A DNA stretch of 25,486 bases from a virus, in IMG/VR virus record IMGVR_UViG_3300046463_000168, positions 1 to 25,486 of that record; one strand, written 5' to 3'. Of this stretch, positions 75 through 7,119 are shown piece by piece. The notes below the pieces were generated by a model. It searched no databases. It saw only the letters and a program-made list of their open reading frames with translations, and was not told where the DNA came from. Each line of letters opens with the position of its first letter. Position 1 is the first letter of the stretch. Position numbers and translations under genes: made by a program.

Positions 75-190
75 GTCGGTCTCGCAGAAAGCAGAAGCAG
101 GATCACGGTGACGGCACCCATCGCGGCAAGGCCGGCGAGAAAGCCGTATGCCTGGTCGATGCTGCGCAGGTCGCGCTCGGTGGGCTTCAT
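68..190 (-). CDS. Small single-span membrane protein (40 aa)
   Basis: A 40-residue protein with a charged N-terminus (MKPTERDLRSIDQAYG) followed by one hydrophobic segment at about residues 17-35, rich in Leu, Ala, Val and Ile, so it probably sits in the inner membrane with a very short C-terminal tail. Its start codon overlaps the stop of the upstream gene as ATGA, and its own end overlaps the start of the next gene. This two-sided coupling is the main evidence that such a short frame is real. It belongs to no family I recognise. In this operon position phages often carry small modulators of the host or of superinfection, but nothing in the sequence proves that. Confidence 0.6.
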   Translation of the reverse strand: MKPTERDLRSIDQAYGFLAGLAAMGAVTVILLLLSARPTC

Positions 191-426
191 GCGGCACCTC
201 GGGCGGCGAGCATGGTGTCGGCGATCGCGTATGCGTCTGCGGCCGCATCGTTTGCCCCGGTGAAATCAGAAGGTTTCCACTCTTGGGACAGCATTCCCTG
301 CATCGCCTTCGCCGCGAAGTAGTCCCGGAGCGTCATGCCCAAGTAGATGAATCCCGGCTTGTTCTCTTCTATGGTCGACGGGAAAGCAGGGCCGCCAGTC
401 GCGTTGATAAATTCGTCGCGTTCCAT
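187..426 (-). CDS. Conserved phage hypothetical protein (79 aa)
   Basis: The protein starts MERDEFINATGGPAFPS and carries the motif GMTLRDYFAAKAMQGML near its middle (about residues 31-47). The combination of a GGPAFP element with a (G)MTLRDYFAAKAM element is common in small early proteins of phages of Gram-negative bacteria; to my knowledge it has no assigned function. I chose ATG 426 because a GGGAG ribosome-binding site lies nine bases upstream and the upstream gene ends just before it (TGAaATG). An in-frame ATG 33 bases further upstream would run into the upstream gene and lacks this spacing. It overlaps the membrane protein gene downstream by four bases. Confidence 0.8.
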   Translation of the reverse strand: MERDEFINATGGPAFPSTIEENKPGFIYLGMTLRDYFAAKAMQGMLSQEWKPSDFTGANDAAADAYAIADTMLAARGAA

Positions 427-427
427 T

Positions 428-793
428 TCAGTGCTCCCACGAAGCAAGTTCACGATCAATCTTTGCCATCCATTCCATCGCTATGACCTCGCTGTCCTGC
501 TCGATGAACATGTGAATCAGCGCGCGGGCCATGACGCCGACGACGGCCATGTCACCGGCCAGCACGTGAGCCCGCATGACGCTAGCAGCGGCTTCTGTGA
601 TGCTCTGGAGGCCGCACACGATGTCGGTGGGAGACATTTCTGCCATGCGCTTGACGATCAGCTCTTGCGTGCGCGCGGCTATCATTTCGTCCCTCGACTC
701 CTCGCTATCAATCGCGTTGTCGAGCTTGGCCTTGGCGCGGTCGATCTCGTACTCCGCCATCGCCTTGATCTGCTTGCTGTCGATCATGTTCAT
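428..793 (-). CDS. Hypothetical early protein, mostly helical (121 aa)
   Basis: A 121-residue acidic, methionine-rich protein that reads as almost entirely alpha-helical. Residues 1-50 are charged (with an EYEIDRAKAKLDNAIDSEES stretch), and a hydrophobic helix with the segment MAVVGVMARALIHMFI lies at about residues 82-97. No known domain recognised. The start is MNMIDS at 793, with a second ATG two codons later. The open frame extends further upstream to 943, but there it is a Ser/Thr/Arg-rich shadow of the 46-codon gene in another frame, so I rejected that longer start. The gene lies one base after the stop of its upstream neighbour, indicating translational coupling within the leftward operon. 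Confidence 0.7.
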   Translation of the reverse strand: MNMIDSKQIKAMAEYEIDRAKAKLDNAIDSEESRDEMIAARTQELIVKRMAEMSPTDIVCGLQSITEAAASVMRAHVLAGDMAVVGVMARALIHMFIEQDSEVIAMEWMAKIDRELASWEH

Positions 794-966: not shown

Positions 967-994
967 ATTATACGACAGTGAATAGATGTGTCAA
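967..994 (-). promoter_or_regulatory. Leftward early promoter, consensus sigma-70 (PL analogue)
   Basis: On the minus strand the -35 box TTGACA (994-989) and the -10 box TATAAT (972-967) both match the sigma-70 consensus exactly, separated by 16 bases. Transcription would start near 960 and reach the AGGTGA ribosome-binding site of the 46-codon gene. It lies just downstream of the terminator closing the repressor operon, the same arrangement as lambda PL relative to cI-rexAB. A promoter this strong must be held off in a lysogen, consistent with the repeats that overlap it. Confidence 0.85.
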
Positions 995-1010
995 TACATC
1001 AATGAATAGA
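979..1010. promoter_or_regulatory. Candidate left operator (OL) overlapping PL
   Basis: Two copies of TGAATAGA lie 24 bases apart (979-986 and 1003-1010). Between them is an inverted repeat, GATGT-6-ACATC (985-1000), lying over the -35 box. TGAATAGA occurs again inverted at 2758-2751 and the shorter TGAATA at 2706 and 2783 in the cI-cro region. Shared sites at both early promoters are expected of CI or Cro binding, but the true operator consensus is not proven. Confidence 0.45.
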
Positions 1011-1018
1011 ATTTGACG

Positions 1019-1042
1019 AAAAAAAGCCTCCCGTAGGGAGGC
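1019..1042 (-). terminator. Intrinsic terminator of repressor-moron operon
   Basis: GCCTCCC (1026-1032) and GGGAGGC (1036-1042) form a perfect 7-bp stem with a 3-base loop, followed on the minus strand by seven U residues (1025-1019). It closes the cI, Adhesin_E-like and lipoprotein operon and insulates it from the PL promoter that begins about 25 bases further on. Confidence 0.9.
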
Positions 1043-1067: not shown

Positions 1068-1478
1068 CTATTGGGATAGTCTCCGGTTGTAGCCTCTGCA
1101 TCCCCCGATATTGCCGTTGTACTGGTACGACCTGATCCGATCGGCCGTATCAACCTCCAAGTCGATTTCGCAGTTATACCCGACTGCCATTGGTACAAAG
1201 GAGGTCGTATTTCCGACCACGTGGGCGGTGCCGAATCGGTTAAAGGCAGTCGCAGTGCCATACGTCGTCTGGGGCATCGCGATTACGCCGGTAGAGTTGG
1301 AGGACCATACATAGACGTGGTGGCCAGCGATTTGACGCTCGGCATTGGGGTAGCCGAGCCTATTGATTGCAACGTCTAGAGGCTCGCCGATAAGCGTCCC
1401 CAAGTTTTGTTGAAAACCACCCCAGGTCATGCAGCCGGTAAGGAGTGCCGGCAGTGCGAAAATCGCTATTCGTTTCAT
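1068..1478 (-). CDS. Exported lipoprotein, lysogen-expressed candidate
   Basis: A 136-residue protein with a classical lipoprotein signal: short basic start (MKR), hydrophobic core and lipobox LLTGC with the acylated Cys at residue 16. The residues after the Cys (MTWGG) have no Asp at +2, so outer-membrane sorting is likely. The next section, about residues 26-60, has a G.LIGEPLDVAINRLGYP pattern followed by a VYVW strand, which resembles the short BamE/SmpA-like fold of small lipoproteins. Two further cysteines near the C-terminus may pair. It is the last gene of the leftward cI operon and is followed by a strong terminator, with no promoter of its own that I can see. It probably alters the lysogen's envelope; superinfection exclusion is one possibility, not shown. 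Confidence 0.8.
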   Translation of the reverse strand: MKRIAIFALPALLTGCMTWGGFQQNLGTLIGEPLDVAINRLGYPNAERQIAGHHVYVWSSNSTGVIAMPQTTYGTATAFNRFGTAHVVGNTTSFVPMAVGYNCEIDLEVDTADRIRSYQYNGNIGGCRGYNRRLSQ

Positions 1479-1527
1479 GGTCTCTTCGATTGTTTTTGGA
1501 TATCTTTAGGCACAACCCGGCGCCCCA

Positions 1528-1539
1528 GACCGGTAAATC
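1528..1539 (-). repeat. 12-bp direct repeat, copy 2 (upstream of lipoprotein gene)
   Basis: Reads GATTTACCGGTC on the minus strand. It is identical to the last coding bases of cI (1981-1992). In both places the repeat is followed downstream by AGAGACC directly joined to the ATG of an exported-protein gene. The pair brackets the Adhesin_E-like gene. Confidence 0.8.
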
Positions 1540-1556
1540 GCACAGCAGAAGATGGA

Positions 1557-1967
1557 CTATCGCGCGCAGGCAAGACTAACGACTGACTCCCCCATGCTGC
1601 CGGGTGCTGGGTCAGTGAGAAACGCTCTCGCCTGAGCATCGGTGTTCATCAACTGGCCAGACTGGGCGCCCCTCAGTTCCGGGCCGCTAAAAGACTGGGC
1701 TTGAAGGAGGGAAAACTGCCGATTTTTGCAGTCCACTAGAAACTGCTGTCTTAGCGAAGAAAAAAACCCGAAGGACGGTTCGTATTGTTGGGTTGGGTAG
1801 GTGATATAGGTCCAGACACGGGCAAAGCCGCTTCGGGTCGCCAGCGATGCTGCCTCGACATAAGAGGTCGACCCATCGTTTCCTGCGAAAAACGGCTGCC
1901 AATTTGCAGCCGAAGCGCATGACATGGCTGCCGCGGTCACGATGCCAACGGCTATTTTTTTGAGCAT
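1557..1967 (-). CDS. Secreted Adhesin_E-like protein
   Basis: A 136-residue protein with a Sec signal peptide (basic MLKK, Ala-rich core, cleavage after ASA near residue 20). The mature part has the layout of the surface-adhesin E-like family: an early Trp strand, a YVEAASLATRSGFARVW segment with conserved Trp, a central QFLVDCKNRQF Cys and a C-terminal Cys in LACAR, which can form a disulfide. The family assignment is by eye. The protein should be periplasmic or surface-associated. It starts seven bases after the cI stop, behind a GAGAGACC leader, so it is surely co-transcribed with cI and made in the lysogen. It occupies the position of lambda rexA. An envelope change that favours the host or blocks other phages is an inference. 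Confidence 0.75.
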   Translation of the reverse strand: MLKKIAVGIVTAAAMSCASAANWQPFFAGNDGSTSYVEAASLATRSGFARVWTYITYPTQQYEPSFGFFSSLRQQFLVDCKNRQFSLLQAQSFSGPELRGAQSGQLMNTDAQARAFLTDPAPGSMGESVVSLACAR

Positions 1968-1973
1968 GGTCTC

Positions 1974-2687
1974 TCATCCCGACCGGTAAATCACTTCGCC
2001 AACGATGTGCACGAACTGCAGCAGCTCAGGCGCAACGATCTTGTCTGGATAGGCCGGATTGTATGAATGCAGGACCAAGCCGCCGCCGGCCTGCTTGAAT
2101 ACCTGCTTCACGAGCGGCTCATCATTGAAGTAAATCGCGTACCGCTCACCGTCGCGGATGCTGGTCGCGGCCGTGTTCACCATGAACACATTACGGTCAT
2201 ACAGGTACGGTTCCATGCTGTCGCCGCGCGATATGAGGAGCTTGCAATCCTTCGGATTGACGCCCTTCGCCTTGAAAAACGCTGAATTGAAGGGCAGCGC
2301 TCGCTTTTCACGAACTTCCCACTGGATCAAGCCATCCCCCGCCGAAAAGTGATAATCGAAGCGGTCGATCCAGATTCGTTCGTCGTCCGGCTCCAAGTCC
2401 TCCGGATTGTCCCAGACGGCAACGTTTCCCAGTTCCTGGGAAAGAGGTACTTTGTGCGCACTTTTCGGTGAATTGGGTCCCGGGCCCGCGCCATCTGTCA
2501 GCCACTCAACGTTGACCGATAAGGCTTGGGCCAATTTCCTGACGTTCTGCAGGTCCGGGTTCGGCGTGACTCCCTTCAATATCCGATTGATTGTTGGCTG
2601 AGGAACGCCAGAAGCGCGAGCAAGCGCGCTTTGGCTTTCGAATCCCCTAGTCTTCATTGCCTCGTCGAGGCGCGTCGCAATATCCAT
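1974..2687 (-). CDS. cI: CI-type lysogeny repressor, S24 self-cleaving
   Basis: A 237-residue repressor. Residues 1-65 form an HTH_3/XRE DNA-binding domain, with the recognition region SALARASGVPQPTINRILKG at about 20-39. The C-terminal half is a peptidase S24 (LexA-like) domain with nucleophile Ser157 in RGDSMEP and general-base Lys194 in PLVKQV. The likely autocleavage site is Ala116-Gly117 in SAGDG. Damage-induced RecA would trigger cleavage and prophage induction. I chose the ATG at 2687: upstream in-frame starts (2759, 2735) add an unstructured tail outside the HTH, and a promoter candidate ends six bases before 2687. It is the first gene of the leftward operon with two exported proteins, and is divergent from cro. 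Confidence 0.93.
   Translation of the reverse strand: MDIATRLDEAMKTRGFESQSALARASGVPQPTINRILKGVTPNPDLQNVRKLAQALSVNVEWLTDGAGPGPNSPKSAHKVPLSQELGNVAVWDNPEDLEPDDERIWIDRFDYHFSAGDGLIQWEVREKRALPFNSAFFKAKGVNPKDCKLLISRGDSMEPYLYDRNVFMVNTAATSIRDGERYAIYFNDEPLVKQVFKQAGGGLVLHSYNPAYPDKIVAPELLQFVHIVGEVIYRSG
1981..1992 (-). repeat. 12-bp direct repeat, copy 1 (3' end of cI)
   Basis: GATTTACCGGTC on the minus strand encodes part of the final residues (IYRS) of CI. Its exact duplicate is at 1528-1539, beyond the Adhesin_E-like gene. Confidence 0.8.
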
Positions 2688-2693
2688 GGCTGG

Positions 2694-2723
2694 AATATAC
2701 GCAACTGAATAATGGGCCGGCAA
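2694..2723 (-). promoter_or_regulatory. Candidate PRM promoter for cI, leaderless
   Basis: On the minus strand, TTGCCG (2723-2718) and TATATT (2699-2694) are separated by 18 bases. The -10 box ends six bases before the A of the cI ATG, so transcription would begin at or very near the start codon. No convincing ribosome-binding site precedes this ATG, which fits a leaderless message like lambda cI from PRM. The weak -35 box fits a promoter needing activation. A TGAATA site (2706-2711) falls in the spacer. Confidence 0.45.
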
Positions 2724-2742
2724 GTTCCTATCCATTCCCGCA

Positions 2743-2770
2743 TTGACGGATCTATTCATCGTCGTATAGA
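2743..2770 (+). promoter_or_regulatory. Candidate rightward early promoter (PR analogue)
   Basis: TTGACG (2743-2748) and TATAGA (2765-2770) have a 16-base spacer, the same spacing as the PL candidate. Transcription would start near 2777 and give a leader of about 28 bases to the cro-like ATG at 2805. It is divergent from and overlaps the region controlling cI. Confidence 0.6.
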
Positions 2771-2788
2771 CTTCTGTATAGGTGAATA
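2751..2788. promoter_or_regulatory. Candidate right operator (OR) between cI and cro
   Basis: TATTCA (2753-2758) and TGAATA (2783-2788) form an inverted pair around PR. Inside it, TATAGA-CTTC-TGTATA (2765-2780) is an imperfect dyad lying over the -10 box. The outer hexamer is the one also found at the PL region. Which dyad is bound by CI and which by Cro cannot be told by eye. Confidence 0.4.
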
Positions 2789-2804: not shown

Positions 2805-3023
2805 ATGGATACGCGCACCCCTTCGGAGCTGCTGACCGAGATCAAAACGACGACGAAGCTCGGCGAAATCGCACTATCGAAGCTGCTCGGCATTTCTCAG
2901 CCGACCGTCAATCGCATCCTCAACGGCAAGAACTGTTCGTCGACCGCTCTGCTCGCGATCCAGCGCGTGCACGCAGAGCGAGCGAAGTACGCCCCCGCAG
3001 AAGCCGAACAAGCCGCCGCCTGA
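2805..3023 (+). CDS. cro: Cro-like DNA-binding protein (72 aa)
   Basis: The first rightward gene, divergent from cI. The 72-residue protein is a single helix-turn-helix domain: residues 17-42 (GEIALSKLLGISQPTVNRIL) match the HTH of CI closely, sharing the SxPTVNRIL / PQPTINRIL recognition helix. The C-terminus is Ala/Glu-rich and unstructured. This similarity implies that both proteins read related operators, as in the lambda Cro/CI pair. The ribosome-binding site is weak (ACGGAAA). The role as Cro (shutting off PRM and early promoters during lytic growth) rests on position, size and the shared recognition helix. Confidence 0.85.
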   Translation: MDTRTPSELLTEIKTTTKLGEIALSKLLGISQPTVNRILNGKNCSSTALLAIQRVHAERAKYAPAEAEQAAA

Positions 3024-3478: not shown

Positions 3479-3937
3479 TTGAATACAACCGACGCGGCGC
3501 ACGCAGTTGCGCACGACTACCAGCACGGCGGCACTGACGCGCTCGCGCTGCGCATGGGCCTTTCTTCCGGCGCGCTGCTGCGCAATAAGGTGGTGCTCAA
3601 CCGCGGCCCCGACAACCGCAATCACCTGACTCTCGTCGAAGCGGTGCGCATGACGGAGATCACTGGCGACCGCCGGATTCTCGAAGCGTGGGCGCGCGAG
3701 CTTGGCCTGGTCGTGATCGAACTGCCCACGCCTGAGAACTGCGCTGACGCTGATGTGATCGAGCTGATGGCGCAGACGTGGGAGACGAACGGTGACATTG
3801 GCCGCGAGGTGAATGCCATCTTCGCTGATGGCCGCGTCGAGCAGCGGGAGGTTCAGCGCCTCAAGGACCGAGTCTGGAAGCATGTGCGCACCGTGTTTGG
3901 TCTGGCCGGCCGCATTGCTGGCATGGCGGAGAAATAG
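3479..3937 (+). CDS. CII-family phage regulatory protein (Phage_CP76)
   Basis: A 152-residue protein with the pattern of the phage regulatory CII/CP76 family: an N-terminal Y-x-GG-x-x-ALALRMGLSSGALLRNK HTH at about residues 14-38, then HLTLVEAVRMTEITGDRRIL at 48-67, followed by helical segments. Such proteins act as transcription regulators in the lysis-lysogeny decision. The start is TTG at 3479, backed by a GGAG sequence seven to nine bases upstream; no ATG lies near the N-terminal motif. It directly precedes the replication genes (three-base gap), the same order as lambda cII-O-P. The 117 bases before it contain no other gene and no promoter I trust. Confidence 0.85.
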   Translation: MNTTDAAHAVAHDYQHGGTDALALRMGLSSGALLRNKVVLNRGPDNRNHLTLVEAVRMTEITGDRRILEAWARELGLVVIELPTPENCADADVIELMAQTWETNGDIGREVNAIFADGRVEQREVQRLKDRVWKHVRTVFGLAGRIAGMAEK

Positions 3938-5987: not shown

Positions 5988-6454
5988 CGGTCACGCTACC
6001 TTGGCCCGTCTCGGCAAACGTCTACTGGCGCACGCGCGTCGTGAAGGGCGTCGCCATGACCTACGTTTCGGCGGAGGCGAAGGCGTTCAAGGCTGACGTC
6101 ACGCGCCTGCTGCGCGCCGCTGGCTGTCGTGCTCCGCTCGCCGGCCGCGTCGCTGTCGCGCTCACGCTGTACCCGCACCGCCCGCAGGACTGGCAGAAGC
6201 GTCAGCGCAAGCTCGGCGCCGCATGGGATGACGGCGTGCGCTCTATCGACCTCGACAACGCGATCAAGGTCACGCTCGACGCGATGAAGGGCGTCGCGTT
6301 TGAGGATGACGTCTGGGTGCGCCGGATTCTTGCCGAGCGCGCAGAGCCCGATGGCGAGGCCCGCTTGATCGTGACCATCACGCAGATCGACGCGCCGGCG
6401 CCTCAGGCCGCGCTTGATCTTCCGCAATCCCTTTTTGATCCCTTGGAGGTTTGA
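5981..6454 (+). CDS. rusA: RusA-type Holliday junction resolvase
   Basis: A 157-residue protein matching RusA. It starts with a short strand and SANVYWRTRV, and the catalytic core SIDLDNAIKVTLDAMKGVAF carries Asp90, Asp92, Lys96 and Asp100, followed by Asp109-Asp110 and the strand VWVRRI, as in the acidic active site of RusA. It cuts four-way junctions during phage recombination and resolves branched DNA before packaging. About 25 residues extend past the usual end (PQSLFDPLEV); the LF pair faintly resembles a clamp-binding tail but lacks the full motif. I chose ATG 5981, with GGAGG eight bases upstream, rather than the longer frame from 5657, which is a shadow of the two preceding genes. Confidence 0.92.
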   Translation: MLTVTLPWPVSANVYWRTRVVKGVAMTYVSAEAKAFKADVTRLLRAAGCRAPLAGRVAVALTLYPHRPQDWQKRQRKLGAAWDDGVRSIDLDNAIKVTLDAMKGVAFEDDVWVRRILAERAEPDGEARLIVTITQIDAPAPQAALDLPQSLFDPLEV

Positions 6455-6456
6455 CC

Positions 6457-6579
6457 ATGCGACCACGCCTGACCCTGATCAACGGCGAGTGGTTTTGCAT
6501 CGGCACGGCGGCTGTTTCGCGCGGTGCAACGATGCGCGATGCCTACGCGCGCTGGTACGCCATGCGCATCTTTGCATGA
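6457..6579 (+). CDS. Small conserved phage protein (40 aa)
   Basis: A 40-residue protein, MRPRLTLINGEWFCIGTAAV followed by a basic, aromatic C-terminus (ARWYAMRIFA). It has a strong ribosome-binding site (GGAGG, about eight bases before ATG) and starts two bases after the rusA stop. The compact strand-turn-strand then helix look recurs in small early proteins of Burkholderia-type phages. Function unknown. Confidence 0.75.
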   Translation: MRPRLTLINGEWFCIGTAAVSRGATMRDAYARWYAMRIFA

Positions 6580-6589
6580 GGCGCTTCGT

Positions 6590-6808
6590 ATGAAGCCAAC
6601 GATCAACAGCACGACGACTGCGGTCGTCACCGTCTCAGTGCGCGTGCAATGTGGCTCATGGGGTCCTGACTGCACGATGGAGCAGGTTCTCAGGCAGGCC
6701 AGCGAGGAAGCCGCCGGGCGCGTGCGTCGCTTGATCCAGGGCGATACGCGCGTCCAGCTGCTGTCGATCGATGCCGCTGATGTTGCTACCAAAGTGGAGC
6801 GCCGATGA
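6590..6808 (+). CDS. Hypothetical early protein (72 aa)
   Basis: A 72-residue protein with a Thr/Val-rich N-terminal strand region (TTTAVVTVSVRVQCG), then a helix (MEQVLRQASEEAAGRVRRLI) and a C-terminal strand-like segment. No known domain. The start at 6590 has GAGG eight bases upstream; the longer frame from 6524 overlaps the previous gene and was rejected. Its stop overlaps the next start by four bases (ATGA). Confidence 0.75.
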   Translation: MKPTINSTTTAVVTVSVRVQCGSWGPDCTMEQVLRQASEEAAGRVRRLIQGDTRVQLLSIDAADVATKVERR

Positions 6809-7119
6809 ACACCCTCCAGATCGCCGGCTCTTTGCCCCGCGACCCTCAGTTCCGCGCCTTCGTCTCTCAATACATGGTGCCGCCGCGAGAGCCGACCGTC
6901 GACGAAGCCGCGGCGTTCATCCGGGCCGCGTGTCACGTCGAGAGCCGCCGGCAGCTTGTCGAGGACCGCGCGGCAGAGCAGCGGTTTCACCGATTCATTC
7001 GCCAGCAGTTTGTTGCGTGGCGTTCAAAGCAGTCCCAACCACAGAGGAAGCAGCATGAGCTACGCAACATTCCCCGGCAACGCCGATGCAGTCGCGCTCG
7101 GCATGGGTCCGATAACTGA
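6805..7119 (+). CDS. Hypothetical early protein (104 aa)
   Basis: A 104-residue basic protein with PRDPQFRAFVSQYMVPPREP near the N-terminus and a helical centre (DEAAAFIRAACHVESRRQL). It is coupled by an ATGA overlap to the upstream gene. Its last 21 codons overlap the next gene in another frame, so the C-terminal tail after about residue 84 (Arg/His/Gln-rich) may be a non-functional extension. The FR..V plus HVESRR pattern might fit a small nucleic-acid-binding or nuclease-inhibitor protein, but I assign no function. Confidence 0.7.
   Translation: MNTLQIAGSLPRDPQFRAFVSQYMVPPREPTVDEAAAFIRAACHVESRRQLVEDRAAEQRFHRFIRQQFVAWRSKQSQPQRKQHELRNIPRQRRCSRARHGSDN

What the first reader, a model, noticed from the sequence alone, without database searches (positions are those of the whole stretch)
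1068..1967. Two exported proteins in the rexAB position of a CI operon
The order CI, secreted Adhesin_E-like protein, lipoprotein, strong terminator, then PL matches lambda cI-rexA-rexB-PL, but the cargo is envelope-targeted. With no other promoter visible they should be made in the lysogen from PRM. Envelope cargo fits lysogenic conversion or superinfection exclusion; this is inferred from position and export signals.
Basis: partly seen in the sequence, partly recalled or inferred. Interest (0 to 1): 0.7.

Follow-up and report, generated by a model that had tools for sequence, protein, structure and literature searches.

The report
Swappable envelope genes behind phage repressor
This bacterial virus carries two genes for exported envelope proteins directly behind its dormancy-keeping repressor gene, and its relatives carry different envelope-protein genes at the same spot, so the site looks like a swap-in bay for proteins that remodel the surface of the infected cell while the virus is dormant, probably to keep rival viruses out.

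Summary
On the - strand: S24-type CI (1974-2759), 6 nt, secreted Adhesin_E protein (1557-1967), lipoprotein (1068-1478), terminator (1042-1026), PL (994-967) inside an operator shared with the cI-cro gap. No other good promoter lies between. Comparison turns this into more than a rex-like position. In nine related phages the cI 3' end and the terminator-OL-PL block are conserved, while the DNA between is swapped: eight slots hold different cargo, one is empty. All ten cargo genes carry export or membrane signals, against 14 of 108 other genes there. In all eight occupied slots cargo starts 2-19 nt after the cI stop. cIs 94-96% identical carry different cargo. The same cargo families also sit behind two other repressors with other operators. 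Adhesin_E folds like Haemophilus protein E; the lipoprotein folds like BamE and belongs to a phage-borne family. A cI-tail fragment is repeated before the lipoprotein, suggesting stacked cassettes. Best reading: a lysogeny-expressed cassette bay for envelope proteins, most likely surface-level superinfection exclusion; expression is strongly inferred, function untested. The cI-N interval of lambdoid phages is a known cargo hotspot (rexAB, bstA), so this is a new variant of a known kind.

The parts
1974..2759 (-). CI repressor with HTH and S24 peptidase domain (the true start may be internal, near 2687)
   Evidence: Pfam Peptidase_S24 3.8e-17 and HTH_3 3.4e-10; phrog_4 transcriptional repressor 8.3e-42
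2694..2723 (-). PRM-like promoter of cI (TTGCCG-18-TATATT)
   Evidence: consensus match only
2728..2758 (.). OR-like operator sequence in the cI-cro gap
   Evidence: 24 of 31 identical to the OL stretch 979-1009
2743..2772 (+). PR-like promoter towards the cro-like gene at 2805
   Evidence: consensus match only
1557..1967 (-). Cargo gene 1: secreted Adhesin_E-family protein (136 aa), starts 6 nt after the cI stop
   Evidence: PF16747 E 5.8e-16; model matches H. influenzae protein E; signal peptide
1893..1912 (-). Terminator-like hairpin plus U5 inside the start of cargo gene 1 (possible attenuator or chance)
1981..1992 (-). 12-mer GATTTACCGGTC at the 3' end of cI (source of the repeat)
1528..1539 (-). 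Second copy of the 12-mer, in front of the lipoprotein gene; AGAGACCATG is repeated too (1965-1974 and 1476-1485)
   Evidence: 1 of 20000 dinucleotide shuffles of the gap shares any 12-mer with the cI tail
1068..1478 (-). Cargo gene 2: lipoprotein (136 aa, lipobox LLTGC), phrog_3716, BamE/SmpA-like predicted fold with a long beta hairpin
   Evidence: E 4.5e-21; model pLDDT 84; BamE Z 8.2 and about 7
1026..1042 (-). Intrinsic terminator closing the cI-cargo operon
   Evidence: conserved position in 9 lineages
979..1009 (.). OL-like operator sequence overlapping PL
967..994 (-). PL (TTGACA-16-TATAAT)
   Evidence: 12 of 12 consensus matches; conserved in relatives

Best explanation
The two genes occupy an exchangeable cassette slot in the repressor operon of a temperate podovirus-like phage of Burkholderiaceae. 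Transcription from PRM reads through cI into the cassette and stops at the terminator before PL, so the genes are on when the prophage is silent, while PL, under the same operator, is off (strongly inferred, about 0.85). Cassettes are swapped by recombination between the conserved cI 3' end and the terminator-OL block, and sometimes stacked: a piece of cI tail is left in front of the lipoprotein (shown as sequence; the mechanism is inferred). The cargo is exported to the periplasm and outer membrane (predicted). Its most likely job is surface-level superinfection exclusion: the BamE-fold lipoprotein docks from the periplasmic side on an outer-membrane barrel that serves as a phage receptor or entry point, and the small secreted Adhesin_E protein masks or blocks a second envelope site (inferred, about 0.5 for exclusion as the main role).
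For: Slot: conserved cI end and terminator-OL-PL around unalignable cargo in nine lineages, with a natural empty slot in L013. cI stop-to-cargo gaps 2-19 nt in 8 of 8 occupied slots; L011/L012 cIs 96% and L010/L014 cIs 94% identical with different cargo; L012's nearest cargo relative is L014, not its cI sister L011. Export signals 10/10 against 14/108. The same cargo behind unrelated immunity: phrog_3716 lipoprotein in L102 behind a non-S24 repressor with other operators; lipoproteins A and B behind a third CI in L136/L137, the lipoprotein A gene 81% identical in DNA to L014's over 258 bp while the window CI and this third CI share 29% aa. Only PRM- and PL-like promoters. Purifying selection: lipoprotein A, L012 against L014, dN 0.21, dS 1.6. 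The phrog_3716 family is phage-borne: 14 viral loci, 9 phage records, 3 of 144 Paraburkholderia genomes. Folds: BamE-like, protein E. Precedents: cI-bstA transcribed as one operon (PMC7067206); Ltp lipoprotein in a lysogeny module excludes phages (PMC3952083).
Against: No transcript data. A terminator-like hairpin lies early in the Adhesin_E gene. Over a wider set of related CIs the slot is often empty or different: of 29 loci, 13 have a gene of 60 aa or more starting within 20 nt of the cI stop (11 exported), 6 have a T-run 39-52 nt after the stop and no such gene, 10 have neither. Lipoprotein A and Adhesin_E have many chromosomal relatives (104 and 31 of 144 genomes), which fits general envelope functions as well as exclusion. 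BamE Z-scores of 7-8 can reflect a common arrangement only (note), and no BamE Pfam match was found. The export rules were written by me after seeing the slot genes.
Confidence: 0.6

Rival explanations
1. Lysogenic conversion for host fitness: the cassette adds an adhesin-like protein and an envelope lipoprotein that help the lysogen attach to surfaces or endure envelope stress; phage exclusion is not the point.
For: Adhesin_E fold matches H. influenzae protein E, an adhesin (recalled). Relatives of Adhesin_E and lipoprotein A are host chromosomal genes (31 and 104 of 144 genomes).
Against: The phrog_3716 lipoprotein is rare in hosts (3 of 144) and common in phage loci, among them Rhizobium Autographiviridae where it follows the terminase gene. 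Adhesin_E is a broad domain found also in proteins not shown to be adhesins (recalled); the secreted protein has no visible surface anchor.
Confidence: 0.27
2. Independent morons with their own control: the genes happen to lie behind cI but are transcribed from their own promoter, perhaps in lytic growth.
For: Phage-borne homologs elsewhere lie on the strand opposite to flanking phage genes (5 of the 12 loci read) or after TerL (4 of 12), so the family can live outside repressor operons. Internal hairpin 1912-1893.
Against: No site with 9 of 12 or more promoter matches between cI and PL apart from PL itself; 2-19 nt gaps in 8 of 8 occupied slots.
Confidence: 0.12
3. Lysis-related or lysogeny-stability proteins, for example spanin-like or lysis-inhibiting envelope proteins.
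For: Small exported proteins and a lipoprotein occur in phage lysis cassettes (recalled).
Against: Position in the repressor operon, not a late operon; no lysis-family match for the two window proteins; variable cargo would not suit a core lysis role.
Confidence: 0.05
4. The slot is passive: any DNA can land behind cI, and the excess of exported genes is sampling among a few related phages.
For: The set is small; the wider CI set includes non-exported or absent cargo; the classifier is crude.
Against: Six distinct cargo families, all exported, against 14 of 108, Fisher p 1.5e-5; recurrence behind two other repressor types, in one of them with an added non-exported gene; signal-bearing or TM genes also behind related repressors of QDWS, ABMM1, BUCTT20 and as second gene in TRS1 (4 of the 7 records tested; Mcat4, Mcat6 and qsb1 not).
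Confidence: 0.1

Closest known systems
Lambda cI-rexAB operon
   Same: Two genes between cI and a terminator/PL, expected from PRM in the lysogen.
   Different: RexA is a cytosolic DNA-binding protein and RexB an inner-membrane protein (PMC11077077, abstract in listing; PMC8585504, passages); here one secreted protein and one lipoprotein, with no Rex match in the Pfam scan.
BstA of Salmonella prophage BTP1 and the cI-N hotspot of lambdoid phages
   Same: Cargo behind cI, co-transcribed with it (PMC7067206, passages); the cI-N interval is described as a mosaic hotspot, citing Degnan 2007 (PMC8585504, passages).
   Different: BstA acts on phage DNA replication inside the cell; here the repertoire is envelope proteins in phages that are not lambdoid by their portal and terminase matches.
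Ltp of Streptococcus phage TP-J34
   Same: Lipoprotein encoded in the lysogeny module on the repressor strand, made in the lysogen, blocks DNA injection (PMC3952083, passages).
   Different: Gram-positive host, cytoplasmic-membrane anchor; ltp follows a metalloproteinase-motif gene after crh; no fold or sequence relation was tested.
phrog_3716 lipoproteins (Yersinia YeP4-6, Rhizobium RHEph01/21, Uetakevirus ZX5)
   Same: Same protein family as cargo gene 2.
   Different: There not in a repressor operon: after TerL or near structural genes.
H. influenzae protein E (Adhesin_E)
   Same: Same Pfam domain and predicted fold.
   Different: 11-14% identity over the Foldseek alignments; binding residues and surface exposure not shown.
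BamE / SmpA-OmlA lipoproteins; TpgA N-terminal domain
   Same: Predicted core fold (Z 8.2, about 7, and 5.5) and lipid anchor.
   Different: Long beta hairpin, no Pfam match at E 1, 7-15% identity.

Membership tests
Adhesin_E (PF16747) | Profile match over the curated cut-off along the whole domain | tested here: met
   59.1 bits vs 23.7, profile 1-109/109
Adhesin_E (PF16747) | Protein E fold | tested here: met
   Foldseek to 3zh7_A E 2.6e-4, prob 1.00
Adhesin_E (PF16747) | Adhesion to host surfaces | not testable with these tools
   needs binding assays
phrog_3716 phage lipoproteins | Profile match and lipobox | tested here: met
   E 4.5e-21; C16 conserved in 12 of 12 sequences of A8
BamE / SmpA_OmlA | Pfam profile match | tested here: not met
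   0 families at E <= 1
BamE / SmpA_OmlA | Fold | tested here: inconclusive
   best Z 8.2 (rmsd 6.0, 77 aligned) and 7.3 (rmsd 3.4, 72 aligned); Z this low can be a common arrangement
RexAB exclusion system | Position between cI and PL | tested here: met
RexAB exclusion system | RexA and RexB homology | tested here: not met
   Pfam scan gave Adhesin_E alone for gene 1 and nothing for gene 2; that Pfam holds Rex models is recalled
Moron | Own promoter and terminator | tested here: not met
   terminator yes, own promoter not found
Superinfection-exclusion lipoproteins (Ltp, Llp, Cor type) | Excludes phages when expressed | not testable with these tools
   plating needed
Lysogeny-expressed cargo slot (cI-N hotspot type) | Conserved flanks with exchanged content | tested here: met

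The most novel reading that the evidence does not exclude
These soil Burkholderiaceae phages keep a dedicated bay behind the repressor that stocks envelope proteins almost exclusively: a shared pool of exclusion cassettes (BamE-fold lipoprotein, Adhesin_E protein, lipoproteins A and B, a 3-TM protein, others) that moves between unrelated immunity types by recombination at the cI tail and the terminator-operator block, and that can be stacked, leaving pieces of cI tail between cassettes. The lysogen's outer surface would then be set by the immunity region, each cassette closing a different receptor.
Probability: 0.33. Interest if true: 0.78.

Novelty: new variant of a known kind. Interest (0 to 1): 0.6.

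Why it matters
It would extend the cI-adjacent cargo hotspot, known from lambdoid phages for intracellular defence (rexAB, bstA), to a repertoire of envelope proteins in an unrelated group of phages, and give a simple rule for finding surface-acting exclusion genes: read the gene within 20 nt of a repressor stop. It also offers a first testable role for phrog_3716, a phage lipoprotein family of unknown function, as a protein that may dock on outer-membrane barrels.

Tried and rejected
Close DNA relatives in the phage collection: only the repressor domain matched, in two records. The Adhesin_E protein gave no match in annotated phages and none in genome contigs by peptide patterns. Solved-structure sequence searches with either cargo gave nothing. 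NCBIfam gave only sub-threshold matches for all three proteins. A weak PHROG match of lipoprotein A to the Cor exclusion family (E 0.028) sits among other chance-level matches and covers the lipobox region; not used. Chromosomal Adhesin_E loci: none of 30 (L062-L091) has a repressor of this CI type within about 1.5 kb, so host copies do not share the arrangement. The pattern hit L043 carries a PL-like motif but no repressor of this type and no recognisable slot; dropped. A crude motif search for an integrase near the L033 prophage found nothing; the Pfam integrase search did. In one search the dN/dS line 'cI window vs L010' was made on misaligned frames and is not used. Lysis cassette and DNA-targeting defence were considered and set aside on position and export signals.

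Literature: no paper describing envelope-only cargo behind cI in Burkholderiaceae phages, a phage role for Adhesin_E, or a BamE-like phage lipoprotein came up (open-access library only; in fact matched the string 'adhesine'). Papers: passages read of PMC8585504, PMC3952083, PMC12894663, PMC9936078, PMC7067206; PMC11077077 seen as start of abstract in a listing; Degnan 2007 seen only as cited.

Full report
What is there. The window is an IMG/VR virus record of 25,486 bases. On the - strand, cI (1974-2759) is followed after 6 nt by a secreted 136-aa protein (1557-1967), after 78 nt by a 136-aa lipoprotein (1068-1478), then a strong terminator (1042-1026) and a 12/12 PL (994-967). The repressor has HTH and S24 domains; a cro-like gene (2805-3023) and a CII-like gene (3479-3937, Phage_CP76 E 2.4e-36) complete a lambda-like switch. 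The sequence around PL (979-1009) is 24/31 identical to one in the cI-cro gap, so the same repressor should hold both. Related phages are temperate: the record of L011 holds an integrase, the L033 relative lies in a 418-kb Paraburkholderia contig with an integrase about 30 kb away, and the contig of the cI relative in G002 holds one too; the records of L016 and L102 gave no match. No integrase search was run on the window. The host is inferred from these relatives; the window record itself names none.

The two proteins. Gene 1 passes Pfam Adhesin_E with a wide margin, and its model (pLDDT 85 from three sequences) finds H. influenzae protein E as the top PDB hits. Gene 2 has a lipobox, falls in phrog_3716 (unknown function), and its model (pLDDT 84 from 12 sequences) aligns best to BamE (Bartonella Z 8.2, E. 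coli about 7 with 72 residues) and, lower, to the TpgA N-terminal domain bound to a trimeric autotransporter barrel (Z 5.5); secreted SCP-domain and beta-lactamase-inhibitor-like proteins score in the same range (Z 7-8). Foldseek itself gave no match at E 0.001 for gene 2, and gene 2 has no Pfam match, so 'BamE-like fold' is the limit of the claim.

The slot. CI relatives from viral and genome collections show what lies behind cI. Nine lineages share the PL/OL block: the window (with its near twin L009), L010, L011, L012, L013, L014, L015, L016 and L033. Their cI 3' ends and terminator-OL-PL blocks align; what lies between does not. Contents: window, Adhesin_E plus phrog_3716 lipoprotein; L010, 96-aa three-TM protein; L011, 96-aa lipoprotein (B) plus Adhesin_E; L012 and L014, 115-aa lipoprotein (A); L015, Adhesin_E; L016, 117-aa protein with N-terminal signal or anchor; L033, 95-aa secreted protein; L013, nothing. 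Cargo starts 2-19 nt behind the cI stop in 8 of 8 occupied slots. cIs of L011 and L012 (96% aa) and of L010 and L014 (94%) carry different cargo, and L012's nearest cargo relative is L014's (76%), not its cI sister's: cargo and repressor have different histories.

Same cargo, other immunity. L102 has a non-S24 repressor without homology to this CI and other operators, yet behind it sits a phrog_3716 lipoprotein (40% to the window's), then a 99-aa gene without export signal, a terminator and PL. There the lipoprotein starts about 205 nt after the repressor stop, so coupling is looser. L136 and L137 have a third CI (29% aa to the window's), behind it lipoprotein B and lipoprotein A with overlapping ends, a terminator and another PL; their lipoprotein A gene is 81% identical in DNA to L014's over 258 bp while no DNA match covers the cI. 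So cassettes cross immunity types.

Export excess. With fixed rules, 10 of 10 cargo genes in the eight occupied slots carry export or membrane signals against 14 of 108 other genes called in ten of the same stretches (Fisher 2e-8, or 1.5e-5 if cargo is collapsed to six families). The rules were written after the slot genes were seen, the gene caller is crude, and related phages are not independent. Over all 29 CI loci examined, with L028 and L032 probably repeats of L027, 13 have a gene of at least 60 aa starting within 20 nt of the stop, of which 11 are exported (not L025, L054); 6 have a T-run 39-52 nt after the stop and no such gene (L013, L017, L018, L019, L023, L031); 10 have neither (L020, L026, L027, L028, L030, L032, L053, L056, L057, L058; in L056 and L057 a TM-bearing gene starts 43 and 36 nt after the stop). 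Nine further CI loci (L034-L038, L050-L052, L055) were not run: by name, length and identity they repeat others; L021 holds only 46 residues. In seven annotated phages with more distant repressors tested, the gene behind the repressor has a signal or TM in QDWS, ABMM1 (216-nt gap) and BUCTT20, the second gene in TRS1, and not in Mcat4, Mcat6, qsb1; an eighth record fetched, L122, was not scored.

Stacked cassettes. The gap before the lipoprotein repeats a 12-mer of the cI tail (GATTTACCGGTC, 15 of 17 bases with its neighbours by eye) and the leader AGAGACCATG. Only 1 of 20,000 dinucleotide shuffles of the gap shares a 12-mer with the cI tail, and no other place in the window does. The simplest reading is that the lipoprotein once lay directly behind a cI and that Adhesin_E came in front of it with its own piece of cI end. 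This is inference.

Expression. Between cI and PL there is no promoter-like site of 9/12 or better; the PRM-like site is just upstream of the likely cI start. Co-transcription is therefore the default, with the BTP1 cI-bstA operon as measured precedent (PMC7067206). A terminator-like hairpin with U5 lies 55-75 nt into the Adhesin_E gene; translation coupled to cI might override it, or it may tune the cassette. This cannot be settled from sequence.

Function. For exclusion: lysogeny-phase expression, envelope location, exchange between closely related phages, a lipoprotein family that is phage-borne (9 phage records; 14 viral loci; 3 of 144 Paraburkholderia genomes), including Rhizobium Autographiviridae where it follows the terminase gene, and strand-isolated copies between phage genes in 5 of 12 loci read (gene labels there are my reading). 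For conversion: Adhesin_E and lipoprotein A have many chromosomal relatives (31 and 104 of 144). I put exclusion as main role at about 0.5 and host-fitness conversion at about 0.27.

Novelty. Cargo behind cI is known: rexAB, bstA, RexABpp (PMC8585504, PMC7067206, PMC12894663), and an exclusion lipoprotein in a Gram-positive lysogeny module is known (PMC3952083). An almost purely envelope repertoire shared between three immunity types of Burkholderiaceae phages was not found in the searches made. I rate it a new variant of a known kind.

Noticed in passing
window 1893-1912 (-): Terminator-like hairpin with U5 inside the Adhesin_E reading frame, a possible attenuator of the cI-cargo transcript.
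   Followed up: partly
window 1528-1539 and 1981-1992 (-): 12-mer of the cI tail repeated in front of the lipoprotein gene, with the leader AGAGACCATG also repeated.
   Followed up: yes
L013 5843-6259, L102 5142-5573: Behind PL, two phages with different repressors share a membrane protein (FLISAxG...LLYGCPQYxVYSQRMDGEAELAQANYSKQ); the early region is shared across immunity types.
   Followed up: no
L092 (G127) 6084-6946 and L100 3590-4444: phrog_3716 lipoprotein preceded by another small secreted protein (104-106 aa); in G127 next to a gene that looks like a contractile-tail tube protein. The lipoprotein often travels with a second exported gene.
   Followed up: partly
L103, L104, L105, L107, L109 (viral contigs); L004 (Yersinia phage YeP5): phrog_3716 lipoprotein lies on the strand opposite to apparent terminase and structural genes, a classical moron placement.
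   Followed up: partly
L025 4495-5277: The one sizeable cytosolic gene tightly behind a related cI (260 aa, DUF3800-like by eye).
   Followed up: no
L123/L143 (G009) and 104 of 144 Paraburkholderia genomes: Lipoprotein A of the slot is related to a widespread chromosomal lipoprotein of the host genus, up to 48% identity.
   Followed up: partly
window 187-459 (-): Gene behind PL matches phrog_2201 (E 1.9e-20) and a regulator family (phrog_30599, E 1.4e-7).
   Followed up: no
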